A program made the translations under genes and the position numbers. A stretch of 64,000 nt of DNA from Streptacidiphilus anmyonensis (GTDB lineage Bacteria; Actinomycetota; Actinomycetes; Streptomycetales; Streptomycetaceae). The stretch covers positions 474,996 to 538,995 of the forward strand of contig NZ_BBPQ01000001.1 of NCBI RefSeq assembly GCF_000787855.1, read 5' to 3'. The notes under the pieces were generated by a model. It was not told the origin of the DNA, made no database searches, and saw nothing but the letters and a program-made list of their open reading frames with translations. Below are positions 18,201-33,029 of the stretch, in pieces. Numbering within the stretch: the first letter of the stretch is position 1; every line of letters starts with the position of its first letter.

Positions 18201-20289
18201 GCAGCGCGGACTCGGCCGCGTGGGCGGCGCGGTGTTCGGCGTCGAGCAGGGCGCGGCGCCGGTTCGACAGCACTGCGCGGGCCCGGTTGACGGCCGCGAG
18301 CACCTCGCCGATGGCCAGCAGGACGGCGGTCCCGGCCGCCGGGTCGGCGGCGACCGCACCGGTCACCAGGTCGGTGACGGTCACCAGGGCGTCGGCCTGC
18401 TCCGTCAGGCGGTCGGCGAGCTGCGCGGCCTCGGCCGCGGTGGTCACCGACTCGGCCTCCTCGGCGGCGTGCCGGGCGGCGGCGAGGACGGCGTCGAACG
18501 CGTCCGGGCCGGCGAAGAAGGCGAAGGCGCGCTCGGTCGCGCCCGTCAACTCGGCCGCCAGATCCGCCTCGACGCGGTCGAGCGCGGCCAGGTCGAGCTG
18601 CGGCAGCTCCCGCAGCAGCCGGGTGCGCCCATGAGCCTGACGCAGCTCGGCGAGCAGACGGGTCCAGGCGTCGGCGTCGGTCGGGGGCTCGCCGTGCGAG
18701 CGGCGGATCAGCGAGGCGGCCTCCTCCCCGGCCTCCTCCAGCGCCTTCGCGGCGCGCGCGGCGAGCCCCCTGACGCGCGCCTGTTCGGCCGCCAACTGCT
18801 CGGCAGCGTCGCGCAGTTCGCTGAGCGGTTCGAGCAGGCCGGTGTCGGCGAGCCAGTAGTGGCGGTCCGCCGCCTTGGCGCAGACGTCCAGGATCAGCTC
18901 CGCGGAGACCGCGGGGACCGCGGATGCTGCGGCCTGGTTGCCCTCCTGGGCGGCGACCGTCGCCGTCCGGACCACGTCGAGGCAGTCGGCGATGCCGCGC
19001 ACCAGGTCGGCGTTGCCGATCCGGGCGAGTGGGCCGTCGCCGACCTCCTGGGCGGCGGCGTGGTCGGCGGACTGGAACGGGGTCTGCCACAGCTGGAGTT
19101 CGTGCGTGCGCACCGGCTCGCGGTCCGGCTTGAGCAGCACCAGGGTGCCGTCCGGCAGCAGGGCGTGCGCCGCGCCGTGCAGCGCCGCGCCGGCCTCACG
19201 GCGGACGGTGTTCCACGGCAGCAGCAGCACCTGGGCCCGGCCCGGCCGGCGCAGCACGTAGAGCAGGTCCTCGCCGTTGGGTGCGGGGAGCACGGCGTCG
19301 AAACGCAGCCCGTCCGCGCCGTCCGCACCGGCGGGGCCGCCCTCCCCGCCGTCGATGCCGTCGATCCGGAAGGCGCGGTGGGTTCCGTCGGCCAGCTCGT
19401 AGCCGCCCGGGAAGAGCAGGCCCTGCTCGGCCGGGAGCAGCCGGGCGCCGAGGCCGAGCGAGTCCTGCCGGCGCACCGACCCGGTGCGGATGTTGACGAC
19501 GAGGTAGCGGTCGGCGGGCTCGTTGTAGGGGCGGATCCGCAGGAGCAGCAGCGGTCCCGTCTCCGCGTAGGCGACGGCGGCGTCCGCCAGGCTCTGCAAC
19601 GGCTCGTCGACGGGCTCCTCGAAGAGGGTCCGGTCACCGGGCACCGTCCGCACGGTGAGGCTGCCGGCGGTGGTGGCGACGGAGACCGCGCCACCACCGC
19701 CGTCGATCCGGATCCGGCCGCGGTCGTGGTGCTCCCGGCCGGTCGTCGTCCAGGGCAGTTCGTAGACGGGCGGCTGCGGCAGGTCCCGCTCGCCGTGGTT
19801 GCCCAGGTACTCGACCCGGTCCTCGCCCAGCTGCCAGCAAAGGACGCGCTGGTCGCCGTCGTACCCGCCGGTGCGGAAGACGGCCAGCAGCCGCCCCGAC
19901 GCCGTCCGCAGCAGGTCGGCGAGGCGGGCGTCGCGGTAGTAGCGCAGCAGCTCGGCCAGGTCGCGGTGGAACCGCTCGTCGTCCAGCAGGCCGGGGACGG
20001 CGCCCGGGTCCAACGCCGTCCCGTCCAGGGCGTGCAGGGAGAGCAGCCCGGCGTCGAGGGTCGGCGCCGTCGTGCCCAGCAGCAGGACGTCGGGCCGGAC
20101 GGCGACGACGCCGCATGCCGTGCCGTCACCGGCGGTGCGCGGCCGCGCGGAGGCCGCGAGCTCCAGAGCGCGGGAGCCGAACGCCTCCTGCCGCCGGGAG
20201 TTCAGCTCGGCCGCCCGCCGCCCCAACTCCTCCGCGCGCTCGGCGAGCCGTGCCCGCAGGATCTGGTAGGTGCCGTCCTCGACGCCCAT
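15238..20289 (-). CDS. giant AAA ATPase with DUF3686-type N-terminal region
   Basis: A 1683-residue protein. The first 900 residues hold a beta-rich, repeat-like region (FRTGGYDGDQRVLCWQLG and similar) and long Glu/Ala/Arg helices predicted to form coiled coils. A Gly/Thr-rich linker lies at about 940-990. A C-terminal AAA domain carries Walker A SPPGYGKTT (about 1357-1365) and Walker B VLLHVDDIQ (Asp about 1425). The layout matches proteins labelled DNA-repair ATPase or DUF3686; that label is not experimental. It is the last gene of an NfeD-like/flotillin/ATPase operon, so it probably works at a flotillin-organised membrane site. The chosen ATG at 20289 follows GGGAAG; a GTG at 20364 overlapping the flotillin stop would add 25 residues. 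Confidence 0.8.
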   Translation of the reverse strand: MGVEDGTYQILRARLAERAEELGRRAAELNSRRQEAFGSRALELAASARPRTAGDGTACGVVAVRPDVLLLGTTAPTLDAGLLSLHALDGTALDPGAVPGLLDDERFHRDLAELLRYYRDARLADLLRTASGRLLAVFRTGGYDGDQRVLCWQLGEDRVEYLGNHGERDLPQPPVYELPWTTTGREHHDRGRIRIDGGGGAVSVATTAGSLTVRTVPGDRTLFEEPVDEPLQSLADAAVAYAETGPLLLLRIRPYNEPADRYLVVNIRTGSVRRQDSLGLGARLLPAEQGLLFPGGYELADGTHRAFRIDGIDGGEGGPAGADGADGLRFDAVLPAPNGEDLLYVLRRPGRAQVLLLPWNTVRREAGAALHGAAHALLPDGTLVLLKPDREPVRTHELQLWQTPFQSADHAAAQEVGDGPLARIGNADLVRGIADCLDVVRTATVAAQEGNQAAASAVPAVSAELILDVCAKAADRHYWLADTGLLEPLSELRDAAEQLAAEQARVRGLAARAAKALEEAGEEAASLIRRSHGEPPTDADAWTRLLAELRQAHGRTRLLRELPQLDLAALDRVEADLAAELTGATERAFAFFAGPDAFDAVLAAARHAAEEAESVTTAAEAAQLADRLTEQADALVTVTDLVTGAVAADPAAGTAVLLAIGEVLAAVNRARAVLSNRRRALLDAEHRAAHAAESALLAQATTAALAAADTPAACDDQLARLLLRVDGLEARFAEAEDLAADLALRREEIRQAFAARRQTLLDEAAARADRVAASAQRALEALRRRLAGLGSAADIHGAQAADPMAVRVRAAALELRALDDQVRSQELEDGLSGAVRTALRELRDRADLSGDGGASVRLGRHRFAVRREPVELTLQPDGEGLAFLVTGTGYRRPARVPQLLEGREFWTQPLVSESPVLYRAEYLAAALLPGAEVDAGAGAGFGPGAAAVTGTGSTGGADIGPDVGLSIGSVTGSTTGAGVRPAIGGGVGPVAAFDAGGREGLLARVRRAAERAYDEGYERGVHDHDASLILDALLRLRAGAGLLEHPAEVRAAAQLFWAYGANDAQRAAWQRRARSLVLARTHFGAAGTATALSDLAAELSEAAAGFTGSLGLPSSSRRAGEYLVAELADPRDGFATGLAARTLLDGFRHTDAAPALDADLKALDRDLAARHQLAAAWLGAYAAARAGEAAGTTAGAGGREGATDDASDSDAADGGDRAGLAEAVAHLCAPELPRYEIGAAVSETVTGLLGAHPRIKDGRLTVRIDELPYRARVFREERAPAFRAFQRQRAEVLSAERARLRLDDYRPRPLAGFVRNQLIDQVYLPLVGDNLAKQLGTLDATGTTGTTDRSGLLLLLSPPGYGKTTLLEYVADRLGLLMVRVDGPALGSGTTSLDPERAPDAAARREVEKIVFALEAGSNVLLHVDDIQHVSAELLQKFIPLCDTQRRVEAVSDGVARSFDLRGRRFAVCLAGNPYTASGQRFEIPDMLANRADVWNLGEVLTGHQNLFALSFLENALGANPVLTPLVGADPADLRLLVALADGDPAAQADQLGRAVPDLDRAVATLTRLRRVQRTVLAVNSAYIASAAQEESSRTEPPFLLQGSYRTMAQLAARIDPVQSDAEVEALLDDHYLAEARTLGNAAEANLLALARLRGRATPAQTARWQALCAAYDSAVPQAEPLR

Positions 20290-20360
20290 GACTGCTTCCC
20301 GTGTCCCTTTGCCCTGTTCCGTACCCGACGATTCCGCACGCCGCTCGGCGCGTGCTGGAG

Positions 20361-22433
20361 TCACTTACCCGTGCCGCCCGTGGTGGCCGCGCCGTTGACG
20401 CCGCTCGTCGCGCCCACCGCGCTGACGAGCCGCGCCGGATCCACGGGGATCGAGCCGTCGGCCGCGCCGCCGCTCAGCAGATTCATCAGCAGGGCCAGGT
20501 TCCACGGACCGCCGGCCGCGAGCGAGCGCAGCACCTCGGTCGCGTCGTCGCCGAAGCTCCGCTCGCCGTTCAGCCAGTCGGCGCCGAGGGCCTTGACGAC
20601 CTCGGAGCCCTGCACCGCGCCGTCGATGGACTTGCCGAAGGACACCGCGCCCACCAGCCGCTCCAGGAAGACGCTGTCCCCGCCGACGATGTCGATGTCC
20701 GCGCTCTCCAGGCCGGCGGCCAGCACCGACGCCTGCGCCTCGGCGACCTTGGCCTGGACCTCCAGCGCGGCGAGCCGCACGTCCTTGTCGGCGGCCAGAC
20801 GCAGCCGGAACTCCTCGTGCGCCCGGGACACCTCGTCCAGCGCGGCCATCGCCGCGGCCTTCTTCTCCAGGCCTGCCGCCTCGCCGAGCAGCTTCTCCCG
20901 GATGGCGGCGGCCTCGGCTTCGGCCTTGCGCTCCGCGACGGCGGCCTCGGCCAGGCCGACCTTCTCGATCGCCGCGGCCTTCTCCTTCATACCGGCCGCC
21001 TCGCCCTCCAGCCGGGCGCGGACACCGGCCGCCTCGGCCAGGGCCTGACGCTCCGCCACCTCGGCCTCGGCCAGACCGGCGGCTCCGGCGAGCGCCCGCT
21101 CGCCCTCGGCCCGGCGCACGTTGGCGGCGGCCTCCAGCTCGGCGCTCTTCTGCCCGGCCTCGGCGAGCACCAACTGCTCCTTGGCCTTCAGGTGCGCGGC
21201 CTGCTCGGCGGCCTCGGCCGCCTTGATGTCCTTGACCAGCTGCTCCTGCGCCTCCGCCTCGGCGGCGATGATCACGCTCTGCCGGGTGCGCTCGGCCTCC
21301 TGCACCACGCGGACGCGCTTGATCTCCTCCTCCTGCTCGGCGACCGTGCGCTCCACCGCGATCCGCTCGCGCACCACCTCGGCCACACCGCGCCGCTCCG
21401 CCTCGACCTCCTTGTCCATCTCGGCCTTGGCGAGCTGCACCTCCTTGTCGCGGTTGACGACCTCCAGCAGCCGGTCCTTCTCGATCCGCTCGGACTCCAC
21501 CGCGAGGACGCGCTCACGGTTCTTCTCCGCGACGGCGATCTCCCGCTGCTGGTTCTCCCGCTGGACGCCGAGCAGCTCCTCGGTGCGCAGCAGCGCGCTG
21601 TGCGCCTTGAGCCGCTCCTCCTCCTGGACCATCGCCGTGGCGGCCTCCTCCTGCGCCTTCAGGGTCTCGATGCCCTTGCGCTGCCGGATCTCCGCCTCGG
21701 CCCGACGCCGCTCCAGCTCCAGCACGGCCTCGCGGGCGTCCACGTCCTGCCGGGTGATCTCCATCTGCTCGTTGCGCTGGAAGTCGTTGGTGCGGATGTG
21801 CTCCAGCGCGGTCAGCTCGGTGATCTTCCGGATGCCCTGCGCGTCCAGGATGTTGGTCGGGTCGAGCTGCGCCATCGGCGTCTGCTCGAGGTGGTCGATC
21901 GCCGCGTCCTCGAGGTGGTAACCGTTCAGGTCGGTGCCGATGGCCGCGATGATCCGGTCCCGGAACTCCTCGCGGTGGGTGTAGAGGTCAGCGAAGTCGA
22001 GCTGCTTGCCGACGGTGCGCAGCGCCTCGGCGAACTTGGCGCTGAACAGGTTCTGCAGCGTCTCCTGGTGGCTCGCCCGGTCGGTGCCGATGGCCTGGGC
22101 CACCTTGACCACGTCCTCGACCGTCTTGTTGACCCGGACGAAGAACGTGATCTGGATGTCGGCGCGGATGTTGTCCTTGCAGATCATCCCCTCGCGGCCC
22201 TTGCGGGCGATCTCGATGGTCTTCACCGAGATGTCCATGACCTCCGCGCGGTGCACCATGGGCAGCACCAGCGCGCCGGTGAAGGTGACCCCGACGCCCT
22301 TGGGCCGGGAGATGATCAGGGCCTCGCCCTGCACGACCTTGCGGAACAGCCGGCCGAAGAGCAGCAGCGTGCCCAGACCGATGAGCAGAAGGACGGCGAC
22401 GAGCACGCCGATACCGATGGTGACAACAGACAT
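20361..22433 (-). CDS. flotillin-family membrane scaffold protein (YqiK-like)
   Basis: A 690-residue flotillin. One N-terminal membrane helix (residues 5-25) is followed by an SPFH/Band-7 domain (about 30-200, with the conserved REGMICKDNI segment). About 350 residues of Glu/Ala/Arg-rich coiled coil come next, then a C-terminal flotillin region with GGDSVFLERLV and a glycine/threonine tail. Flotillins form oligomeric scaffolds in fluid membrane microdomains. The NfeD-like gene immediately upstream is the typical flotillin partner. The downstream ATPase start lies within or 71 bp after this gene's end, so all three appear co-transcribed. An AGGGA site precedes the ATG. Confidence 0.93.
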   Translation of the reverse strand: MSVVTIGIGVLVAVLLLIGLGTLLLFGRLFRKVVQGEALIISRPKGVGVTFTGALVLPMVHRAEVMDISVKTIEIARKGREGMICKDNIRADIQITFFVRVNKTVEDVVKVAQAIGTDRASHQETLQNLFSAKFAEALRTVGKQLDFADLYTHREEFRDRIIAAIGTDLNGYHLEDAAIDHLEQTPMAQLDPTNILDAQGIRKITELTALEHIRTNDFQRNEQMEITRQDVDAREAVLELERRRAEAEIRQRKGIETLKAQEEAATAMVQEEERLKAHSALLRTEELLGVQRENQQREIAVAEKNRERVLAVESERIEKDRLLEVVNRDKEVQLAKAEMDKEVEAERRGVAEVVRERIAVERTVAEQEEEIKRVRVVQEAERTRQSVIIAAEAEAQEQLVKDIKAAEAAEQAAHLKAKEQLVLAEAGQKSAELEAAANVRRAEGERALAGAAGLAEAEVAERQALAEAAGVRARLEGEAAGMKEKAAAIEKVGLAEAAVAERKAEAEAAAIREKLLGEAAGLEKKAAAMAALDEVSRAHEEFRLRLAADKDVRLAALEVQAKVAEAQASVLAAGLESADIDIVGGDSVFLERLVGAVSFGKSIDGAVQGSEVVKALGADWLNGERSFGDDATEVLRSLAAGGPWNLALLMNLLSGGAADGSIPVDPARLVSAVGATSGVNGAATTGGTGK

Positions 22434-22503
22434 GGCTGTTCCCTTGGACTGACCTTGCCGCGAATGAAAGAAAGAGAGTTGGGAGACCCGACGTGACGCC
22501 GCG

Positions 22504-23175
22504 TCAGCCGGTGGGCGACGGCGCGGGCATGACCCAGAAGAACTCGCCGTCGGCGTCGTAGTCGTAGATGAGCGCGGACGCCCCCGCCCGCAGCGTCTCC
22601 CCCGGCCCGGCCGCGTCGTCGAGGCTCTGCCGGACCTGCACCACGGCGGAGGAGCCGTCCGCCGACCGGACCTCGGCCTGCCCGAAGTCGGGCCCCACCC
22701 GGCCGGTCCGGATCACACAGCCGAGCCCCACGAAGTCCCGCCGCGAGGGCGGCGGAGGCGGCTGCGGCATCATCCGCCGCACCGGCGCCACCAGCAGGCG
22801 GGCCCCGGCCCACCCGCCGAGCAGCGCCAACGGCAGCAGAAACCACCGGCCGCCGCCTCCACCGACCCACTCCCGGCCCACCAACGCGGAGAACCAGGCG
22901 AACGCGACCACCAGCGACACCGCCACCGTGATCGGTACCCCGCCCAGCCCCAACACCCGCGTCAGGCCGGCATGCCCGTGGCGTCCCCCACCGTGACCAT
23001 GGCCGTGTCCCCCGTCATGCCCGCCATGTCCACCGTGGCCCCCGTGCCCGCCACGGGCCCCGTGCAGATGCGCTCCCCCGACGAGCACCAGCAGCCAGTA
23101 GCCCACCACCACGACCAGCGCGAACGTGAAGACCACGGTCGGATACCCCGTGACCGCCCCCAGAAAGCCCCGCAC
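22504..23175 (-). CDS. NfeD/YqiJ-like membrane protein with His-rich loop
   Basis: About 223 residues: an N-terminal helix (FTFALVVVVGYWLLVLV), then a loop of about 35 residues made almost only of His, Gly and Ala, two more helices, a polar linker, and a C-terminal OB-fold-like domain with DFVGLGCVIRTGRVGP. This is the YqiJ/NfeD arrangement that accompanies flotillins and is thought to stabilise them. The His/Gly loop (HGGHGGHGGHDGGHGHGHGG) could bind divalent metal ions; that is inference. The start is unsure: GTG at 23175 is placed just before RGFLGAVTG; GTG at 23196 or 23214 are options. Confidence 0.72.
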   Translation of the reverse strand: MRGFLGAVTGYPTVVFTFALVVVVGYWLLVLVGGAHLHGARGGHGGHGGHGGHDGGHGHGHGGGRHGHAGLTRVLGLGGVPITVAVSLVVAFAWFSALVGREWVGGGGGRWFLLPLALLGGWAGARLLVAPVRRMMPQPPPPPSRRDFVGLGCVIRTGRVGPDFGQAEVRSADGSSAVVQVRQSLDDAAGPGETLRAGASALIYDYDADGEFFWVMPAPSPTG

Positions 23176-23318
23176 TGCGCTCGCCCGCCTCTGCACATCC
23201 CCCGGCGGCCACACTCCGTGAACCGCCCGAGCGTCAGAGTGGCAGCGCCACCACCCCGCGCACACTGCACGATCCCGGCAGTCTTAGCGCCCTCTTAGCG
23301 TCCTGGATCAGCTCACAA

Positions 23319-23381: not shown

Positions 23382-23792
23382 TCACCACCGCGCGGGCCAA
23401 CCACCGTCCGCGCCGGACGGGACGGTTGGCGTGAGCGTGGGCGCGGGCGCGGGCGTGGGCGCGAGCGTGGGGGTCGGCTGGGGCGTGAACGTCGGCGTGG
23501 GCGGACGGACGGGTGAGGTCGGCAGCGCACAACACGGCGACGGAGCCCCGAGGCCGTGCGGTCGGCCGTGGACCGGCCGGTCGGTCCACGGCGCGCTCGG
23601 CAGGCCGGTCCGTGGCGGCGCGGTCGGCGCCGGGGCCGAGCCGCTTCCGCCGGCGGGAGCCGAGGAGCCGAGGAGGTTGCCCGTCGCCTCGGCCGTGGCG
23701 CCGCAGCCGAGCAGCGCGACCGCCAGCACGGTCAGCCCCACGGAGGCGCGCAGGGTCCGGGAAGCCGCGAACCGCGGGTCGACGTCCGCCAT
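23382..23792 (-). CDS. Pro/Thr-rich lipoprotein, last gene of TerY-P type operon
   Basis: A 136-residue protein with a signal peptide ending in the lipobox LLGC (Cys about 30). The mature part is low-complexity Ser/Gly/Ala then Pro/Thr repeats (PTPTLAPTPAPAPTLTPT). No enzymatic domain is visible. Its start codon shares a base with the vWA stop (TGATG), so it is translationally coupled. It probably decorates the outer face of the membrane as a spacer or contact point for the signalling proteins encoded upstream. Confidence 0.72.
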   Translation of the reverse strand: MADVDPRFAASRTLRASVGLTVLAVALLGCGATAEATGNLLGSSAPAGGSGSAPAPTAPPRTGLPSAPWTDRPVHGRPHGLGAPSPCCALPTSPVRPPTPTFTPQPTPTLAPTPAPAPTLTPTVPSGADGGWPARW

Positions 23793-24442
23793 CAGTCCAC
23801 GTACTCCTGGGCCACCTGCACGTACTCGAAGCCCTTGACGTCGGTGGCAATCTGCATCTGTCCGGTCTTCGACGAGGCGATCAAAGTGTTGAGCAGGCCG
23901 GAGATCGCCGCGCTCAGCGCCGACTCGGTGTCCGACCCGTCGGCGATGAACAGCGCCTTGGTCGCCACCTTCTCCAGCACGTCGCGCTGCGCGCCACCGA
24001 ACCCGTAGGCGATGACGTGCGGGTGACGCGGCCAACTCCGGTCCACCAGCGCGCGGAAGGATTTCTGCCAGTGCGCGTCGGTCGGACCGCCGTCGGTGAG
24101 GAAGAAGACCGTCGGGCGCAGCACGCTGAAGTTCTGCGCCCGCAGGTTGTCGACGTCCTGCTCGATGCACTGCCGGACCTGATCGAAGGTCTTGCCGTAC
24201 TCCGTGCGCCCGCCGCAGATCACCTCGGGCATGGTCGGCACCTGTTCCATGTCGGACATCGGGATCACCACGTGCACGTCGGTGGAGAAGGCGACCACGC
24301 AGACCCGGGCGAACTCCGAGACGCGCGGGTTCGTCGCCAGGTTGTAGTGCAGGCGGGCGAGGGTCGCGTTGAGAACCGCCTCGTGCGGCTTCATCGACGA
24401 GGACGCGTCGATCACCACGTAGGTGGGCAGGCAGAGTGACAC
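23792..24442 (-). CDS. TerY/YegL-like von Willebrand factor A protein
   Basis: A 216-residue protein that is essentially one vWA domain. The MIDAS motif is complete: DASSSM (residues about 12-17), a conserved Thr in GGRTEYGKT, and Asp in FFLTDGGPTD. Length and motif spacing match TerY and E. coli YegL, which occur with a PP2C phosphatase and a kinase. Metal-dependent ligand binding probably lets it recruit or sense partners whose phosphorylation is set by the other two. The GTG start at 24442 is 14 bp after the kinase gene, with a GAGG site. Confidence 0.88.
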   Translation of the reverse strand: MSLCLPTYVVIDASSSMKPHEAVLNATLARLHYNLATNPRVSEFARVCVVAFSTDVHVVIPMSDMEQVPTMPEVICGGRTEYGKTFDQVRQCIEQDVDNLRAQNFSVLRPTVFFLTDGGPTDAHWQKSFRALVDRSWPRHPHVIAYGFGGAQRDVLEKVATKALFIADGSDTESALSAAISGLLNTLIASSKTGQMQIATDVKGFEYVQVAQEYVD

Positions 24443-24456
24443 GGTGCACCTCTGAG

Positions 24457-25785
24457 CTAGTGGTTGGCGGCGATGAGGACGAGCAGGAGCGCGGCGACGA
24501 CGAGCACGAGGATCCATCCGCCGTTCGGGGTGATCGCCGGCTTCTGCCTCGTCACGGTGGGCTTTGCGGACTCCCGGAGGGCCCTGGCGAACGCCGACTC
24601 GGGTTCCTCCTTGCCCGCGGGGGTGACGCCCTGAGGCTGCGGGAGCGGGCGCGGCGACGGAGGCAGCGCGGGCAGTGCACTGCGCGTGGGACGTGGCACG
24701 GCCCGGAGGTACGGCCCGCCGTTCAGCGCCTGGACCAACTGGGCGGCCGACGGCCGCCGCTCGCGGTCCGTGGCGAGCAGCATGTCCAGCAGCACGTCGC
24801 AGACCGCGGGCTGGTTCTGCCACGGGGACGCGGCGACGGTGTGGAAGGCGTGCGCGTCCCGCTGCCCCGTCAGGCACTTGGCGACGAGCAGTCCGATCCG
24901 GTAGCGGTCGGTGTACTCGTCGGCGTCGGTGCCCGGCGGCGTGAGCGGGTCGGCCCAGTTCGGCTGGTGGATGTCGGGCATCTTGTCGGGCTGGCAGCCG
25001 TCCACGTCGATGAGGTAGACGGAACGCCGGTCCGGGCTCCAGAACGCGTTGGAGAACGACCAGTCCGAATAGACCAGCCCCAGGCGCTCCAGGATGGCGG
25101 CGAGCTCGCCCAGTCGGCGGCAGGCGGCCAGTCGGCCGGCGAATCCGGGGCGCGGCAGGCCGACGCCGTGGATCGACTCGTCGGATTTCGCCAGCCAGTC
25201 GATCTCCACGAAGCGGCGCTCGCTGAACGTGCCGCGCCGCAGCTCGGACCGGTACTGGTCGGGCGCGACCGGGATCACGCAGCCGACGGCCGGGTTGCCG
25301 GGCCCGGTGATCCGGGCCGCGGGCCAGCACGTCCCGGCGTACAGGGCCGTACGGTCCGCCTCCGGCAGGGTGTCCGGCGCCGAGATCAGGAGGTCGAGAC
25401 GGCGGGCGTCCTCCCGAGGCAGATCGGGCCGGTAGAGCTTGGCCAGCCAGCCCGGATGGTTCGTCAGCGGCCGCACGGCGACGGCCTGGCCGTTGTGTTC
25501 CGAGATCGGCTCGGCGAACGGTCCGAGATCGCCGAGGCTCACCGTGCGCGGCAGCGTCCAGCCTCTCGGATCGACCGCCGGGCGGCCGCCTCCGGTGCCG
25601 GGGCGGCTGCCTGCGTCGGCGTCCGCGTCCGCGTCCGCGGTGACCGTGCCCGTGCGCGTGCCCGTGCTCGCGCCTGCGCCTGCGCCTGCGTCCGGACCCG
25701 TGCCCTTGTCCGGACCTGCGCCTGCGTCCTTGTCTGCTGTGTCCGCCTCTGAGTCCGCGGTGTCGATGGCAGGGCGCTCCGTCAT
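24457..25785 (-). CDS. membrane-anchored protein kinase (YegI-like)
   Basis: A 442-residue kinase-fold protein. The first 80 residues are disordered Asp/Ala/Gly/Thr repeats. The kinase core (about 85-350) has an ATP-binding Lys in LAKLYRP (about 115), a catalytic loop YSDWSFSNAFW with Asp and Asn but Tyr-Ser in place of His-Arg, and a metal motif DVDG in place of DFG. A Pro-rich stretch precedes a single C-terminal membrane helix (GGWILVLVVAALLLVLIAAN, about 420-440), so the enzyme is tail-anchored facing the cytoplasm. With the PP2C and vWA neighbours it forms a YegI-YegK-YegL or TerY-P type triad. ATG overlaps the phosphatase stop (ATGA). Confidence 0.85.
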   Translation of the reverse strand: MTERPAIDTADSEADTADKDAGAGPDKGTGPDAGAGAGASTGTRTGTVTADADADADAGSRPGTGGGRPAVDPRGWTLPRTVSLGDLGPFAEPISEHNGQAVAVRPLTNHPGWLAKLYRPDLPREDARRLDLLISAPDTLPEADRTALYAGTCWPAARITGPGNPAVGCVIPVAPDQYRSELRRGTFSERRFVEIDWLAKSDESIHGVGLPRPGFAGRLAACRRLGELAAILERLGLVYSDWSFSNAFWSPDRRSVYLIDVDGCQPDKMPDIHQPNWADPLTPPGTDADEYTDRYRIGLLVAKCLTGQRDAHAFHTVAASPWQNQPAVCDVLLDMLLATDRERRPSAAQLVQALNGGPYLRAVPRPTRSALPALPPSPRPLPQPQGVTPAGKEEPESAFARALRESAKPTVTRQKPAITPNGGWILVLVVAALLLVLIAANH

Positions 25786-27050
25786 GCCCGGCCGCCGTTC
25801 CACACCACGACGGCGGTGCGGTCGTCGAGGCACTGCGGCGCGTCGAAGCCGACGTCGGCGGTGAACCGGGTGGCCGGGACCGGTGAGCGCCAGGCGTTCG
25901 CGAAGTACACATTGACCTGGCCCGCCGAGTCCGCCCACGCGTCGCCGATCCCGTCCGTGACCAGGGCGAGGGCAGCGCCGGGGGCCAGCGTGACGTAGTG
26001 GTCCCGGGCCAGCTGCGGCGTGTCCGGCAGCCGCCCGGCGACCTCGTTCGACACCACGGCGGCCGCACGGTCCTTGGCGTCGCCGGCGGACAGCATCCAC
26101 AACGGGCTGCGCGGGTCGAGCCTCCAGGCCGAACTGTCGCCGAGCCACGCGACCCAGGCCTCCGCCACTCCGTCGGCGTCCGGTTCCGCCAGTACCGCGG
26201 TGATCAGCACGGTGGCCACGTGCGAGGTGCTGACGCCGCGTCCGGCCGCGTGTGCGGCGACCGACTCGGCGATCCGCCCGTACAGCTCCTTGACGTCCAG
26301 CCCGCCGAAGCCCACGGACTCGATCTGCTCCCGCAGCAGGGTGACGGCCTGGCTCGAGGCCGTGGTGGCTCCGGCGTCGGACCAGGCCGCGCTGGACAGG
26401 CCGTCGGCCACCGCCACGATCGCGTACCGGCTGTCGCGGCTTCGCCCGATCCGGTAGGAGTCCTGCCGCGGCTCGGCAGGCTGGCCGCAACGGTGACCGG
26501 GCCCGATGACCGAGGCAGCGCGGATGGTGAAGGCGCCGACCGCGGCCTCGTCCGCGGCGATGCCGTTCTGCACCGTGCGTTCCGGCAGCAGCCACGGGTA
26601 GCCCTGAGCCCGGGCGCCGTCGCCGAAGCGGGGCACGCTCAGGTCGGTCGGCCGCTCGCGCAGGAACGGCTGGGGCCTCGCGGCCTGGGCCTGGGCCTGC
26701 ACTTGGGCCTGGGACAGGGCCTGGGCCCGGGACAGGGACGCCGAGGCGGCGGAGGCGGTCGTCGGAACCGCGGCGGTGACGTAGCGGCAGATCGGAGCCG
26801 TACCGTCGGGGCGCGGCTCCTGTGCGAGTCGCTCCCGCTGCCGGGCGAGCGTCCCGGCGGCCTCGGACCCCAGTACGGCGGCCGCGCCGGCGACGCCCAC
26901 GGCCGCGAGCGCGAACACGTCCACCAGCAGGCCGTAGCGCCGATGTTCCGTACCCACCTCGACGAGGGCCCCGACGACGACGGCCGCCAGCAGCACCGCT
27001 CGCACCCACCCCTCCATGAGGCCGCCTCCCCGGCCCTCGTCCCGGCTCAC
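25782..27050 (-). CDS. membrane-anchored PP2C-type protein phosphatase
   Basis: A 422-residue phosphatase. One or two hydrophobic segments lie at residues 12-60, followed by an Ala/Gln-rich linker (QAQVQAQAQAA) and a PP2C domain from about 170. All metal-binding signatures are present: QDSYR, VAVADGLSSA, WLGDSSAW, TDGIGDAW and DDRTAVVVW. It should reverse phosphorylation by the kinase encoded just downstream. The GTG start at 27050 overlaps the stop of the preceding small gene by four bases, and GGAGGAG lies just upstream. Confidence 0.88.
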   Translation of the reverse strand: MSRDEGRGGGLMEGWVRAVLLAAVVVGALVEVGTEHRRYGLLVDVFALAAVGVAGAAAVLGSEAAGTLARQRERLAQEPRPDGTAPICRYVTAAVPTTASAASASLSRAQALSQAQVQAQAQAARPQPFLRERPTDLSVPRFGDGARAQGYPWLLPERTVQNGIAADEAAVGAFTIRAASVIGPGHRCGQPAEPRQDSYRIGRSRDSRYAIVAVADGLSSAAWSDAGATTASSQAVTLLREQIESVGFGGLDVKELYGRIAESVAAHAAGRGVSTSHVATVLITAVLAEPDADGVAEAWVAWLGDSSAWRLDPRSPLWMLSAGDAKDRAAAVVSNEVAGRLPDTPQLARDHYVTLAPGAALALVTDGIGDAWADSAGQVNVYFANAWRSPVPATRFTADVGFDAPQCLDDRTAVVVWNGGRA

Positions 27051-27508
27051 GGCCGCTCCTCCGCATCGCGGGAGTCACGGCCGCGGGAGTCGCGGTCGTG
27101 GGAGTCGCGGTCGCGGGATTTCGGCCCGGAAGCGAAGTGCTGACTGCCGTGCAGCACAGCGAACACTTCTCCTGAATGCGTGGCGGAGTTGACCTGGATC
27201 GCCACACCCGGCTGTTCCGTGGCGCGCAGGGACGCCAGCGCCATGACGTCCTGGGCGAGAGCCGGATTCCGTTCGAGCAGCTGGGCCAGGGCCTCGGTCC
27301 AGTAGTGCAGGACCGAGGCGTCGACCGCTCCCCTCGTGGCGGTCGACGAACGGTCCAGCGCGACGGACAGCTCCTTGCGTCGGCTGCCGCGAGCCTGCGC
27401 GATCACGCCGCTCATCAGCCTCCTGGCCTCCTGCCAGAGATCGGTGCCCATCGCGGAGACCAGCGCGGTGGCGCCGCTGGCGGCCAGCTCGGCGAGTTCC
27501 TCGTTCAT
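27047..27508 (-). CDS. small helical protein with VFAV motif
   Basis: A 153-residue protein of unknown family. Residues 1-95 are helical (LAELAASGATALVSAMGTDL), resembling short regulatory helices found in effector-associated streptomycete proteins. Residues about 103-125 carry the beta-type motif HSGEVFAVLHGSQHF, which recurs in the cyclase-like protein upstream (NGTVFAVHRGDQYI) and the 90-residue protein at 31907 (AAVFAVEHGTMHV). The C-terminus is an Arg/Asp/Ser repeat tail from a 15-bp DNA repeat. Its stop overlaps the phosphatase start. I infer an adaptor or effector recruited through motif-to-motif contact. Confidence 0.65.
   Translation of the reverse strand: MNEELAELAASGATALVSAMGTDLWQEARRLMSGVIAQARGSRRKELSVALDRSSTATRGAVDASVLHYWTEALAQLLERNPALAQDVMALASLRATEQPGVAIQVNSATHSGEVFAVLHGSQHFASGPKSRDRDSHDRDSRGRDSRDAEERP
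27067..27118. repeat. 15-bp tandem repeat encoding Asp-Arg-Asp-Ser tail
   Basis: About three and a half copies of CGCGGGAGTCGCGGT-like units lie at 27067-27081, 27082-27096, 27097-27111 and partly beyond, inside the 3-prime end of the 153-residue gene. They write a charged RDS-repeat tail. Confidence 0.7.
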
Positions 27509-27517
27509 CGGCGCGTA

Positions 27518-28285
27518 TCAACCCCGGTCGTTGTGGCGGATGTACTGGTCGCCCCGGTGGACGGCGAAGACCGTGCCGTTGCCCGTGGCCTGGACGAACT
27601 GCTCCGCACTCCGCGGCCCGGGTTCCGCACCCGTCCCGCCGGAGCCGGAGCCACTCCCGGACTCCCGCCCGGACCCCCGGACGGGGTCGACGCGCGGTCC
27701 GACGGGGCTGCCCGGGTACCAGAGCCAAGCCCGCGCCGCATACTCCTTGACCCGGACATCGGCCTCGGTGAAGGCGTCGGCCTCGAGCCCGTCGTAGCCG
27801 TGCCCGACCGTCTCCTCGTAGAGGTGCTGCGAAAGGATCGCGGCCACCGGGGTGCCGTTCGGCCCGGCCATCGCCGCCTGCCGCAGCGGTGCCGAGTCGA
27901 GCAGCCGGGCCAGCGCCTCGAAGGGCGCGCCGGAGACGGCTCCCCCGGGGTCGAGCCTGATCTCCCCCGCGTGCACCGCGACCCGCACCCGGAGCCGGGT
28001 GTCCGGGCCAGCGTGCCGGTTGTGCTCGCGGATCCGCGAACTCAGCTCCGGCAGCAGCGGGACCAGCAGTCCGGCCTTGGGCAACGACGCCGGCGCGACG
28101 AGCTGGCAGCCGTCGCCGGTGTCGACGTACGCGAAGTCCCGTGCGTCCAGACGCGCGGTGTCCAGGGCACCCGTCAGCGCGGCCCGCAGAACCCTGCGGA
28201 TCTCCTGGAGTCGCTGCTCGCCGCGGCCCGCGGAACCCGCGATGTCGCACGCCAGCAGGGCTCGGTATTCGTACCTCGGATTCAC
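27518..28285 (-). CDS. nucleotide cyclase-like protein with C-terminal VFAV motif
   Basis: A 255-residue protein with a class III cyclase-like core (about residues 5-175). Both metal Asp positions are kept, in LLACDIAGS and YVDTGDGCQLV, as is the VAVHAGEI strand. The usual Asn of the Asn/Arg transition-state pair is not evident in FEALARLLDS, so activity is uncertain. A Gly/Ser linker leads to the C-terminal motif NGTVFAVHRGDQYI. First gene of the operon with PP2C, kinase and vWA, divergent from a Crp/Fnr-type gene, suggesting a nucleotide signal or a nucleotide-sensing scaffold. Start chosen at GTG 28285 with AGGAGGG upstream; an ATG at 28348 would add 21 residues. Confidence 0.68.
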   Translation of the reverse strand: MNPRYEYRALLACDIAGSAGRGEQRLQEIRRVLRAALTGALDTARLDARDFAYVDTGDGCQLVAPASLPKAGLLVPLLPELSSRIREHNRHAGPDTRLRVRVAVHAGEIRLDPGGAVSGAPFEALARLLDSAPLRQAAMAGPNGTPVAAILSQHLYEETVGHGYDGLEADAFTEADVRVKEYAARAWLWYPGSPVGPRVDPVRGSGRESGSGSGSGGTGAEPGPRSAEQFVQATGNGTVFAVHRGDQYIRHNDRG

Positions 28286-28354
28286 AATCCCTCCTGCGAT
28301 CACGACGGGGACCGGCTGTTCGAAGATCCGTGCCGCCTGCCCTGACATCCGTTG

Positions 28355-28373
28355 CCGTCACGATGATTGACGG
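28355..28373. promoter_or_regulatory. dyad in divergent promoter of cyclase-like and Crp/Fnr genes
   Basis: CCGTCA and TGACGG flank a 7-base centre, forming a perfect 6-bp inverted repeat. It lies 70-88 bp upstream of the cyclase-like start and about 85-103 bp before the Crp/Fnr ATG. The TGAC half-site and spacing fit a Crp/Fnr-family dimer, so autoregulation is plausible; this is inference. Confidence 0.45.
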
Positions 28374-28457
28374 GATCGTAGGGGAGGGGTCCTCGGGTAG
28401 AACGGCTACTAATACGGCTTGTGCGGCTTCGGCCGAACGGGAAGAGAGGTGTGGCCG

Positions 28458-29264
28458 ATGAGCAGGACACGGGTGCGCGGGGCCTCGGCCTACTGGCCGC
28501 CGGCCGGACTGCTCGGGCGGGTCGACGAGGCCGACCGCGCGATCCTGCTGGGGCTCGGCCACGGCGTGGTCTACCCGGCCGGTCAGATCACCATCCGCGA
28601 GGCCGACACCTCGGACTTCGCGCTGCTCCTGGTCGGCGGCACGGTCAAGGTGACCGCGCACGCGCAGGACGGCCGCGAGGCGCTGCTGGCCGTGCGGATG
28701 GCCGGCGACCTGGTCGGGGAGCTCGCCGGGATCGACGGCCAGCCGCGCATCGGCACCGTGACCGCCTGCGGCCGGGTGCTGGCCCGGTACATCCTCCGGT
28801 CCGAACTGCTGGAGTGCACCAAGCAGCACCCGGCGATAGGGCTCGCGCTCAACGCCAGCGTGGTGGCCAAGCTGCGCACGGCCACCGGCCGGATCGTCGA
28901 CTTCACCGGCTGCGACGTACTCGGGCGGCTGGCCAGGATCCTGCACCACCTGGCCGTCACCTACGGGCGGCCCGGCCGCAACGAGGCCCAACTGCCGCTG
29001 TCACAGCCTGAGATGGCGACCCTGGTCGGCGCGGCGGAGTCCTCGGTCCACAAGGCGCTCCGGGCGCTGCGCGCGTCGGGCGCGGTCGTGACCGGCTACC
29101 GCAGGATCACGATCCTCGACCTGGACCACCTCGCCCGGATCGCGGCCGCGGCCGGGCCGGCGGAGGGCACGGCGTCCGAGCCGCCGGTGCACGCGGTGGC
29201 CCGGCCGCACGCTGGCATCGGGGCCGGGCCCGCCCGATCACCGGCGATCTCGCCGAACACGTAA
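28458..29264 (+). CDS. Crp/Fnr-family transcriptional regulator
   Basis: A 268-residue regulator. A cyclic-nucleotide-binding-type beta barrel (about residues 10-125, GDLVGELAG as the phosphate-binding-like cassette) is followed by the long dimerisation helix and a winged HTH (about 175-225, LSQPEMATLVGAAESSVHKA). A disordered 40-residue tail ends the protein. It diverges from the cyclase-like gene and precedes the STAND ATPase gene, so it is the likely switch for both transcripts. The ATG at 28458 has a GAGAGG site. Whether it binds a nucleotide made by its neighbour cannot be read from sequence. Confidence 0.88.
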   Translation: MSRTRVRGASAYWPPAGLLGRVDEADRAILLGLGHGVVYPAGQITIREADTSDFALLLVGGTVKVTAHAQDGREALLAVRMAGDLVGELAGIDGQPRIGTVTACGRVLARYILRSELLECTKQHPAIGLALNASVVAKLRTATGRIVDFTGCDVLGRLARILHHLAVTYGRPGRNEAQLPLSQPEMATLVGAAESSVHKALRALRASGAVVTGYRRITILDLDHLARIAAAAGPAEGTASEPPVHAVARPHAGIGAGPARSPAISPNT

Positions 29265-29345: not shown

Positions 29346-31850
<2,505 letters not shown>

Positions 31851-31906: not shown

Positions 31907-32179
31907 ATGCCCACCGAACCCACATCCGGGGACATCCACGCCGGGGACGTCTCCGGCACCCTCGTCGTCGGCGACAACAACCACGTGACGAACACGACGC
32001 ACGGTCCTGAACGGGGGCAGCCGCTGCCGGGTCAACGGAACACCGCGCAGGACCAGGCAGCCGTCTTCGCCGTCGAGCACGGCACCATGCACGTCACCTA
32101 CAACGCCGCCGGACCCGAGCCCGAGCCCGCGCCCGAGCCCGCGCCCGAGCCCCAGCCCCAGCCCCGGCCGGACCGCTGA
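31907..32179 (+). CDS. 90-residue protein carrying both cluster motifs
   Basis: The N-terminal motif (residues 7-29, DVSGTLVVGDNNHVTN) is nearly identical in pattern to the N-terminus of the STAND protein encoded 56 bp upstream. The second motif (residues 51-65, AAVFAVEHGTMHV) matches the VFAV motif of the cyclase-like and 153-residue proteins of the divergent operon. The C-terminus is a Pro/Glu repeat tail. There is no enzymatic domain. Carrying both motif types, it looks like an adaptor joining the STAND sensor to the other proteins, as inference. GAAAGG precedes the ATG. Confidence 0.7.
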   Translation: MPTEPTSGDIHAGDVSGTLVVGDNNHVTNTTHGPERGQPLPGQRNTAQDQAAVFAVEHGTMHVTYNAAGPEPEPAPEPAPEPQPQPRPDR

Positions 32180-32234: not shown

Positions 32235-33029
32235 TCAGTCCTTCTCCGAGAGCAGTTCCAGGTCCTGGGCGCTCAGCGTCGCCGTCTTCAGCAGTTCCCG
32301 GATCAGATTGACGCTGAGCGTCGATCCGACCGGCTCACCGACCTCGTCCCGCAGCAGCCCGCGCACGCCGCGCCGGTGCAGCCGTTCACGCACGTCCTCG
32401 ACCGTGTTGGCCACCGACTTGTAGGTCCAGGACTTGGTCGCGTACGGCGAGGTGTTGACCAGTCGAGCCGTGTCCTCCCAGGGCAGCGGGAGCGGGAAGG
32501 CGTCGTGGCCCTCCAGGTAGCGCCGGGCGAGTGCGGTGAGCACCAGCCGCTCCTGCGGGGAGAGCTCGTAGATCGTCTCAGGGTCCACGGTCTCCGCACT
32601 GCTGGTGGAGCGGGGATGCCGGTCGTCCTCGTCCACGACGCGGACCTCCACCAGGTGGGAACGCTGCTTGGACGAGTTGATCACCAACGGGGTGTACCCG
32701 GACTCGATGATCCGCTTGTGGCCCGTCAGCATCAGCACCCCGTCCGGCAGTTCGATTGGCAGGTTGCCGGTGTTGACCAGCCACCAGTCGCCGTCCGTGC
32801 CGGTGCAGGTGAACACGCCGTGCCGGCGGCTGACAGTCGGGTCGTCGACGCCGACGGGTACGTGCACGTCCTCCCGGTCACGCCCGAACAGCAGCGTGTA
32901 GCGGCGCGGCGGGACCGCGTACCCGCCTTCGGGGCCCAATACGAAGATCGTCCCCGGCGGCGCCGGGGGCACCCGGCCGGACGGACTGCCCGGCGGCAGC
33001 ACCTGGGGTGGGAAGTTTCCGTACGCCAT
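32235..33029 (-). CDS. FHA-domain protein
   Basis: A 264-residue protein. A Pro-rich N-terminus is followed by an FHA domain (about residues 25-110) with the phosphopeptide-binding signature LLFGRDREDVHVPV, then TVSRRHG. A C-terminal helical domain (about 140-264) resembles a winged helix. FHA domains bind phospho-threonine, so it is a natural reader of the Ser/Thr kinase encoded divergently 204 bp away. GGAGG lies eight bases before the ATG. Together with that kinase and the SEDS gene it resembles a reduced copy of the pknA/pknB-rodA-fha locus. Confidence 0.88.
   Translation of the reverse strand: MAYGNFPPQVLPPGSPSGRVPPAPPGTIFVLGPEGGYAVPPRRYTLLFGRDREDVHVPVGVDDPTVSRRHGVFTCTGTDGDWWLVNTGNLPIELPDGVLMLTGHKRIIESGYTPLVINSSKQRSHLVEVRVVDEDDRHPRSTSSAETVDPETIYELSPQERLVLTALARRYLEGHDAFPLPLPWEDTARLVNTSPYATKSWTYKSVANTVEDVRERLHRRGVRGLLRDEVGEPVGSTLSVNLIRELLKTATLSAQDLELLSEKD

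What the first reader, a model, noticed from the sequence alone, without database searches (positions are those of the whole stretch)
27518..29264. Divergent cyclase-like and Crp/Fnr genes with a dyad between them
Seen: the cyclase-like core keeps both metal Asp positions (CDIAGS, TGDGCQ); the Crp-like protein keeps the nucleotide-binding fold; CCGTCA-N7-TGACGG lies between the two starts. Inference: a local nucleotide signal loop in which the product controls transcription of both arms of the locus. The cyclase may instead be a degenerate sensor, as the Asn/Arg catalytic pair is not clear.
Basis: partly seen in the sequence, partly recalled or inferred. Interest (0 to 1): 0.58.

Follow-up and report, generated by a model that had tools for sequence, protein, structure and literature searches.

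The report
Immune-like sensor wired to a cyclase
In soil bacteria of the Streptomyces family, a membrane-anchored immune-type sensor appears to be wired through a tiny two-headed connector protein to a cyclase-like enzyme and a probable cell-death protein, beside a nucleotide-sensing gene switch; if true, bacteria have their own version of a bridging adaptor built from short self-assembling tags.

Summary
The two divergent genes are real: a class III cyclase-like protein (27518-28285, minus; likely start GTG 28285) and a Crp/Fnr regulator (28458-29264, plus).

The larger finding lies outside the given frame. The cyclase ends in a tag (motif B) that also ends the next, BELL-like helical protein (27047-27508) and a 90-residue protein (31907-32179). 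That small protein also carries motif A, the N-terminal tag of a STAND-type NTPase with a predicted membrane segment (29346-31850). All five genes with both tags occur in 18 of 18 close loci and, diverged, in 7 of 13 distant ones.

Best reading: an NLR/BELL-type, amyloid-like module in which a bipartite adaptor links sensor tag A to effector tag B, with a cyclase-like second output read by Crp. Cyclase activity is uncertain: metal Asp pair and Arg kept, catalytic Asn replaced by Glu. Cyclase-Crp pairing is wider (18 of 24 remote relatives). Assembly, product and DNA binding are untested. New variant of a known kind.

The parts
27518..28285 (-).
   Evidence: fold; catalytic positions
27530..27589 (-). 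Motif B at the cyclase C-terminus (ATGNGTVFAVHRGDQYIRHN), after a variable Gly/Ser/Pro linker
27047..27508 (-). BELL-like small helical protein (153 aa)
   Evidence: helical model of residues 1-97; widespread domain family; homologues with varied C-termini
27125..27199 (-). Motif B in the BELL-like protein (IQVNSATHSGEVFAVLHGSQHFASG)
   Evidence: dN/dS 0.17 against 0.52 for the helical part
28458..29264 (+). Crp/Fnr-family regulator (268 aa)
28355..28373 (.).
28419..28440 (.). Alternative 22-bp imperfect dyad TTGTGCGG-N6-CCGAACGG; at most 1 mismatch to TYGTNCGG-N6-CCGNACRA in 14 of 18 loci; candidate operator only
   Evidence: not enriched in the genome
29346..31850 (+). STAND-type NTPase (834 aa) with motif A at its N-terminus, P-loop, one strongly hydrophobic segment and about 180 residues after it
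29388..29453 (+). Motif A in the STAND protein (RVGNVSGTMVVGSHNTVNNLRI)
31248..31304 (+). Predicted transmembrane segment of the STAND protein (ISALAVACTLGFVAVVGVG, mean hydropathy 2.26)
   Evidence: a 19-residue window of 2.0 or more in 17 of 17 close and 7 of 7 distant sequences examined (7 of the 12 distant STAND genes)
31907..32179 (+). Bipartite adaptor candidate (90 aa): motif A, Pro/Gln-rich linker, motif B
31940..31996 (+). Motif A in the adaptor (AGDVSGTLVVGDNNHVTNT)
32039..32104 (+). Motif B in the adaptor (NTAQDQAAVFAVEHGTMHVTYN)
25782..27050 (-). PP2C-type phosphatase downstream of the BELL-like gene; neighbour in 17 of 17 named loci, role in the module unknown
24457..25581 (-). 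Neighbour in 17 of 17 named loci (the 'kin' query); kinase-like only by recall of such clusters, no Pfam match
23792..24490 (-). vWA-domain protein; neighbour in 17 of 17 named loci
32235..33029 (-). Protein with an FHA match just under the cut-off (20.3 against 20.7 bits); neighbour in 17 of 17 named loci

Best explanation
The cyclase-like and Crp genes belong to a five-gene signalling module. A membrane-anchored STAND (NLR-type) NTPase senses something, perhaps through its C-terminal region, and exposes its N-terminal motif A on activation. A dedicated small adaptor carries the same motif A at its N-terminus and motif B at its C-terminus, so it relays assembly from sensor to effectors. Two effectors bear motif B at their C-termini: a BELL-like helical protein (probable membrane or cell-death executioner) and the cyclase-like protein, which would be switched on by clustering. 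Its nucleotide product would be read by the linked Crp, which would adjust transcription of both arms. Shown by computation: the genes, their order and conservation, the shared short motifs, strong purifying selection on B in two of the three proteins, a cyclase-type fold match, a predicted membrane segment. Inferred: homotypic (amyloid-like) assembly through A and B, catalysis by the cyclase, nucleotide and DNA binding by Crp, membrane topology, and a cell-death role of the BELL-like protein.
For: Motif B pattern: 3 places in the window against 0.08 expected, 0 of 100 shuffles reach 3; all three are in frame in these genes (the pattern was written after seeing the motif). Motif A pattern: 3 places in the 9.4-Mb genome, 2 of them here, reversed control 0. 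All five genes with both motifs in 18 of 18 loci, motifs most diverged in L006, L016 and L018. An adaptor-only profile run over 297 genomes gave 46 matches; by place 43 fall in this locus or its counterparts: 24 adaptors (18 of them the profile's own members or nearest kin), 12 STAND N-termini, 5 BELL-like tails, 1 cyclase tail, 1 unassigned (placed). Motif B similarity between protein types is 1.49 to 2.96 per residue against -0.80 (sd 0.51, maximum 1.08 of 3000 draws) for adaptor B against random stretches of the BELL-like and cyclase bodies. B in the BELL-like protein and in the adaptor are the two most constrained segments measured (dN/dS 0.17 and 0.24). The BELL-like domain recurs in 158 of 297 genomes; in L079 a neighbouring P-loop protein shares the tag GGDAYxAGRD with it, the NLR/BELL pattern described in PMC7889193 (passages). 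Cyclase-Crp linkage in 18 of 24 remote relatives.
Against: No amyloid or interaction experiment. STAND motif A is not specially constrained (dN/dS 0.82; 0.76 without L016 and L018), adaptor motif A (0.37) no more than the adaptor linker (0.35), and the cyclase tail only mildly (0.51 and 0.47 against 0.61 and 0.63 for its linker). The stricter motif B pattern is weak genome-wide (4 places, 2 here, control 2). Similarity of motif A to a published BASS3 peptide is weak: 113 of 2000 shuffles as good for the window adaptor, 1112 of 2000 for the window STAND copy; best case 17 of 2000 for STAND L052. STAND assignment rests on Pfam matches below their cut-offs. Motif A similarity across clades is mixed: STAND2-adaptor2 (2.06) is lower than STAND1-STAND2 (2.40). 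The cyclase lacks the catalytic Asn and the usual purine Lys. Of 13 distant loci an adaptor was found in 8 and a BELL-like gene in 11. Of 20 other BELL-like loci fetched, a P-loop protein met my neighbour rule in 4 and clearly shared the tag in 1; two (L070, L071) showed no tag. 6 of 24 remote cyclase relatives had no Crp nearby. The BELL-like model's best PDB match has E 1.8.
Confidence: 0.5

Rival explanations
1. One reading: the cyclase makes a nucleotide, Crp senses it and binds the dyad between the genes; the shared tags are incidental.
For: Cyclase-Crp linkage is wider than the module: 18 of 24 remote relatives have a Crp gene within 600 bases, and none of the 24 stretches has a BELL-like match, so the pair may be older than its capture into the module.
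Against: The named dyad occurs in 1 of 18 loci. It does not explain motif B in three genes or motif A in two. The genome has two other proteins over the cut-off for the class III cyclase domain, so Crp need not depend on this one.
Confidence: 0.2
2. The cyclase-like domain is catalytically dead and acts as a nucleotide sensor or a scaffold recruited by motif B (compatible with the rest of the module).
For: Asn of the Asn-x3-Arg pair is Glu in 20 of 20 close and distant rows, while 9 remote relatives keep Asn there. Kaur et al. 2020 (PMC7159879, passages) report that several cyclase domains fused to vWA components of conflict systems are inactive.
Against: Both metal Asp and the Arg are invariant in 24 of 24, which is not expected after loss of catalysis, and the Crp partner is retained.
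Confidence: 0.3
3. Motifs A and B are ordinary docking peptides (for example strand addition in a folded complex), not amyloid-type tags; the module still connects sensor, adaptor and effectors.
For: Weak similarity to BASS3; no fibre evidence; the cyclase model puts the tail as two short strands only at very low confidence.
Against: Short length, terminal position, variable linkers, pairing with a BELL-like domain and the NLR-type setting follow the pattern described for bacterial amyloid signalling.
Confidence: 0.3
4. The small ORF 31907-32179 is not a real gene and the motif matches are chance.
For: It is short and the patterns were chosen after the fact.
Against: 18 of 18 loci keep it with fewer amino-acid than silent changes (pN/pS 0.41 and 0.29 in the two motifs); profile matches in 297 genomes fall in the same locus (43 of 46).
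Confidence: 0.02

Closest known systems
Bacterial NLR/BELL amyloid signalosomes with BASS motifs (Dyrka et al. 2020, not held; known here through passages of PMC7889193, PMC8086366 and PMC12261475)
   Same: STAND/NLR-type NTPase with a short N-terminal tag; small helical effector with a short C-terminal tag; actinobacteria; clustered genes.
   Different: Sensor and effectors carry different tags (A and B), joined by a separate two-tag adaptor; a cyclase-like protein is a second tagged partner; the sensor has a predicted membrane segment; a Crp regulator is linked. PMC12261475 mentions pairs or triplets sharing a tag, so several tagged partners as such are not new.
ASC-type bipartite adaptors of animal inflammasomes (recalled)
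   Same: One small adaptor links a sensor's domain to a different effector domain by two homotypic contacts.
   Different: ASC uses two folded death-fold domains; here two tags of about 20 residues. Analogy only.
NTP-dependent conflict systems of Kaur et al. 2020 (PMC7159879, passages and outline)
   Same: vWA, STAND and cyclase-type parts, actinobacterial setting; some associated peptide-processing systems are linked to CRP-like regulators.
   Different: The passages seen do not describe this five-gene set or a two-tag adaptor; the paper was not read whole.
Pycsar (pyrimidine cyclase plus cyclic-nucleotide receptor)
   Same: A cyclase-like protein beside a cNMP-binding protein; the Crp N-terminal domain resembles that of PycTIR (E 1.4e-8).
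   Different: The receptor is a transcription factor, not a TIR or membrane effector; the cyclase has no PADLOC match, PycC included (E up to 0.01).

Membership tests
Class III nucleotidyl cyclase | Cyclase fold | tested here: met
   Profile match to 3mr7 E 0.0006; first four Foldseek hits are guanylyl cyclases, best E 0.026, none at 0.001 or less. VIA Z 7.1 for the best named cyclase, under 7.4 for an unnamed protein and below the tool's caution level of 8. The model is weak (mean pLDDT 47.5).
Class III nucleotidyl cyclase | Two metal-binding Asp | tested here: met
   D14 and D58 invariant in 24 of 24 rows and 18 of 18 close loci
Class III nucleotidyl cyclase | Catalytic Asn and Arg (N-x3-R) | tested here: not met
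   Arg in 24 of 24; Asn replaced by Glu in 20 of 20 close and distant rows
Class III nucleotidyl cyclase | Cyclic nucleotide synthesis | not testable with these tools
   needs an enzyme assay
Crp/Fnr regulators | cNMP-binding fold plus Crp-type HTH | tested here: met
   Both Pfam domains above cut-off; best solved relative 3r6s, E 6e-23
Crp/Fnr regulators | Nucleotide-contact residues | tested here: inconclusive
   Glu and Arg of the phosphate cassette (positions recalled) kept in 18 of 18; the residue after Arg is I, V or T
NLR/BELL amyloid signalosome | NLR/STAND NTPase with N-terminal short tag | tested here: inconclusive
   P-loop and tag present; nSTAND1 23.8 bits and AAA_22 24.6 bits are under their cut-offs
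NLR/BELL amyloid signalosome | BELL-domain effector with C-terminal tag | tested here: inconclusive
   No BELL profile is held; homologues of the domain carry varied C-termini in 20 fetched stretches
NLR/BELL amyloid signalosome | Same tag on NLR and effector | tested here: not met
   STAND carries A, effectors carry B; only the adaptor carries both
NLR/BELL amyloid signalosome | Tag forms amyloid | not testable with these tools
   needs peptides
BASS3 / RHIM-like motif (motif A) | Clear similarity to BASS3 or RHIM | tested here: inconclusive
   113 of 2000 and 1112 of 2000 shuffles as good for the window's two copies, 17 of 2000 for the best of four copies tried; no RHIM match in Pfam for the adaptor at E up to 10
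Pycsar | PycC-type cyclase with TIR or membrane receptor | tested here: not met
   No PycC match for the cyclase at E up to 0.01; the receptor is a Crp regulator
MoxR-vWA ternary conflict system | MoxR ATPase with vWA protein and effector | not tested
   vWA present; MoxR not sought

The most novel reading that the evidence does not exclude
A bacterial counterpart of the ASC adaptor made of two short amyloid-type tags of different specificity, which lets one membrane-anchored NLR-type sensor drive two outputs at once: a BELL-like killer and a class III cyclase whose activity is switched on by clustering and whose product is read by its own Crp.
Probability: 0.35. Interest if true: 0.85.

Novelty: new variant of a known kind. 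Interest (0 to 1): 0.66.

Why it matters
The review passages seen here describe bacterial amyloid signalling as two-gene NLR/effector clusters that share one tag, and say that its outcome remains to be explored (PMC7889193). A locus with two tags, a bridging adaptor and two tagged outputs makes tag specificity directly testable, and would join NLR-type assembly to cyclic-nucleotide signalling and gene control in one conserved module.

Tried and rejected
Alternative dyad TYGTNCGG-N6-CCGNACRA: conserved before crp but written from the same sequences, and not enriched genome-wide (19 places with up to 1 mismatch against 40 for the reversed control); the window alone has 7 places with up to 2 mismatches against 1.92 expected, scattered. 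Distant loci differ: L048 has a perfect GATCCCGT-N6-ACGGGATC in the same gap, others imperfect versions by eye, so no single operator is claimed.

Motif A as BASS3/RHIM: suggestive only; no RHIM match in Pfam. Structure of the cyclase tail: confidence too low to use. Fold search with the BELL-like model gave nothing. PADLOC (E up to 0.01): no match for the cyclase, BELL-like protein or adaptor; weak Avs3a (0.0035) for STAND and MkoA (0.0059) for the kin neighbour. Concerted evolution of motif A between STAND and adaptor: seen in clade 1 only, not claimed. Literature: the listings and the passages opened showed no description of this module; this covers the held library only, and the primary BASS paper is not held.

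Rows dropped: adaptors L016 and L018, the two cyclase tails with an insertion (L016, L018), STAND L016, and the cyclase tail of L048 were left out of the similarity tables; STAND L010, STAND L050 and adaptor L044 were not in the set. STAND L010 is also missing. One search looked at 7 of 12 distant STAND genes. One search lost 6 of 18 loci to a strict expression; they were recovered. One search's Crp alignment read the window in a wrong frame and was discarded. The 20 stretches were picked from the better-scoring remote hits, not at random; the 20 were picked, mostly hits to the helical domain alone.
Full report
What is there. The window lies in an actinomycete whose closest loci come from Streptomyces, Kitasatospora, Streptacidiphilus and Actinacidiphila. 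The cyclase-like ORF and the Crp ORF are divergent as described. The Crp protein is a clear family member. The cyclase-like protein has no Pfam or NCBIfam match alone, and its 18-row profile finds nothing in the PDB, but a 24-row profile reaches a solved class III cyclase at E 0.0006, and the first four PDB hits of the weak model are guanylyl cyclases, none at E 0.001 or less. Its start is probably GTG 28285, after GGAGGGATT, from where homologues also align.

Active site. D14 and D58 (metal) and R127 are invariant in 24 of 24 rows (7 close, 13 distant, 4 remote); position 123, aligned to the catalytic Asn of 3mr7, is Glu in 20 of 20 close and distant rows and in 18 of 18 close loci. The purine-determining Lys is not kept: V, A, T or F stands four residues before D58 in 18 of 18 close loci (the role of that position is recalled). 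Of the remote relatives, L057 and L059 and L096, L097, L098, L099, L102, L106 and L108 keep Asn. The genome has two other proteins over the Pfam cut-off for the class III cyclase domain.

The dyad. CCGTCA-N7-TGACGG is exact at 28355-28373, but a perfect dyad of this geometry is found in the 175 bases before crp in 1 of 18 loci, the window. The conserved part of the gap lies nearer crp. It includes a 22-bp dyad with a 6-base spacer, within 1 mismatch of TYGTNCGG-N6-CCGNACRA in 14 of 18 loci (2 mismatches in 3, 3 in 1). It has the geometry known for Crp sites (recalled), but the pattern came from the same sequences and is not enriched in the genome.

Shared tags. The cyclase ends in ATGNGTVFAVHRGDQYIRHN after a linker of variable length. 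The next gene holds NSATHSGEVFAVLHGSQHFASG near its end. A 90-residue ORF after the STAND gene holds NTAQDQAAVFAVEHGTMHVTYN. A DNA pattern for VFAVxxG finds 3 places in the window, these three, against 0.08 expected. The same small ORF begins with GDVSGTLVVGDNNHVTN, and the STAND protein with GNVSGTMVVGSHNTVNN; a pattern for this motif finds 3 places in the whole genome, 2 of them here, reversed control 0. A stricter motif B pattern, which the adaptor copy does not fit, finds 4 places, 2 here, control 2, so that genome-wide test is weak for B.

Conservation. In the window and 17 named loci all five genes and both motifs are present, 18 of 18; motifs are most diverged in L006, L016 and L018. 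The neighbours called pp2c, kin, vwa and fha are also found in 17 of 17. A scan of 297 family genomes with the cyclase profile gave 116 with a match: 18 at E 3.2e-128 or lower, 13 at 3.8e-70 to 1.1e-56, the rest weaker; these overlap in part with the named loci. In the 13 intermediate loci Crp was found in 12, a STAND gene in 12 (a short hit in the 13th), the BELL-like gene in 11, an adaptor in 8, and all five genes in 7 (the L044 adaptor by tblastn match only). There motif A reads like IxGDAxGPVVVGRDNRV and motif B often has Tyr for Phe, in more than one protein. An adaptor-only profile over the same 297 genomes gave 46 matches; by place 43 fall in this locus or its counterparts: 24 adaptors (18 of them the profile's own members or nearest kin), 12 STAND N-termini, 5 BELL-like tails, 1 cyclase tail and 1 unassigned; 3 lie elsewhere. 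In a class-wide sample of 296 genomes the adaptor profile matched only the own genome and G103. Cyclase matches at E 1e-20 or lower were in 18 of 296; none but the window's own exceeds 107 bits; most stop before the tail, though G509 spans positions 6-246 (tails not looked at).

Selection. dN/dS (all pairs pooled): BELL-like helical part 0.52, motif B 0.17, C-terminal end 0.72; adaptor motif A 0.37, linker 0.35, motif B 0.24, end 0.70; cyclase domain 0.40, linker 0.61, tail 0.51; STAND motif A 0.82, NTPase 0.41 (similar without L016 and L018). So motif B is strongly constrained in two proteins and weakly in the cyclase; motif A is not specially constrained in the STAND protein, and in the adaptor no more than its linker.

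What the neighbours suggest. The STAND protein has a strongly hydrophobic 19-residue segment followed by 114 to 187 residues in 24 of 24 sequences examined (17 close, 7 of the 12 distant), so it is probably membrane-anchored (topology inferred). The BELL-like protein is a confident helical bundle over residues 1-97 with no PDB counterpart found. Its domain is widespread: 158 of 297 genomes. In 20 further stretches, chosen by me, its homologues have different C-termini; two show no tag. A P-loop protein met my neighbour rule in 4 of 20; in L079 it carries the same tag (GGDAYQAGRD and GGDAYVAGRD), in L086 and L088 a looser resemblance, in L083 none. L088 itself ends in a motif B-like NTARDHGTVFAVQGG. 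This matches the BELL/BASS description in the review, though no BELL or BASS profile was available.

Cyclase and Crp. Of 24 remote relatives of the cyclase (4, which prompted the test, and 20), 18 have a Crp gene within 600 bases, and none has a BELL-like match in its stretch. The pair may be older than the tagged module. Kaur et al. (PMC7159879, passages and outline) describe cyclases in actinobacterial conflict systems and CRP-like regulators linked to some, so nucleotide signalling in this setting is known in principle.

Mechanism and confidence. I favour: sensor activation, templating of adaptor motif A, clustering of motif B proteins, cyclase output and BELL-like action, with Crp feeding back on both arms. 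Every step after the gene content and motifs is inference. Alternatives are a dead cyclase scaffold, or non-amyloid docking tags; neither removes the adaptor logic, so the odds given overlap. I file the module as a variant of NLR/BELL signalling, not as a member of the two-gene type, because sensor and effectors do not share a tag directly.

Papers: PMC7889193, PMC12261475 and PMC7885112 were seen as passages; PMC7159879 as passages and outline; PMC8086366 as passages and section 13; others only as search listings. Dyrka et al. 2020 was not seen.

Noticed in passing
L079, 133-4510: A BELL-like protein and a neighbouring P-loop protein share the tag GGDAYxAGRD, the one-tag NLR/BELL arrangement.
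   Followed up: partly
L086 and L088: BELL-like proteins (L088 with a motif B-like NTARDHGTVFAVQGGSLHYHQ) beside an overlapping open frame with a P-loop that bears AYGxxGxxIHVF, possibly the sensor side of a related tag; gene starts not determined.
   Followed up: no
L060, 5944-6240: A two-motif adaptor-like protein in a stretch without a cyclase match, near a stretch similar to the STAND protein.
   Followed up: partly
L061 5803-6354 and L062 5809-6363: Small open frames with a motif A-like stretch (IHIGSVQGAFAIGDNNTVTN) and a hydrophobic C-terminus; possible further users of motif A-type tags.
   Followed up: no
window 15238-23265: Beyond the vWA gene, on the minus strand: an ORF without Pfam match (NfeD-like by recall), a Band_7 protein and a 1708-aa DUF3686 ATPase; possibly one long operon.
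   Followed up: no
window 28366-28418: A strongly conserved stretch before crp (GGGGTCCTCGGGTAGAACGGCTACTAATA) that fits no promoter consensus I recognise.
   Followed up: partly
L043-L049 and L051-L055, crp-cyclase gap: By eye 9 of 12 distant gaps hold AATACNGG near the middle, with CATACTGG- or CACTGTG-like elements on the two sides, perhaps divergent promoters round one operator.
   Followed up: partly
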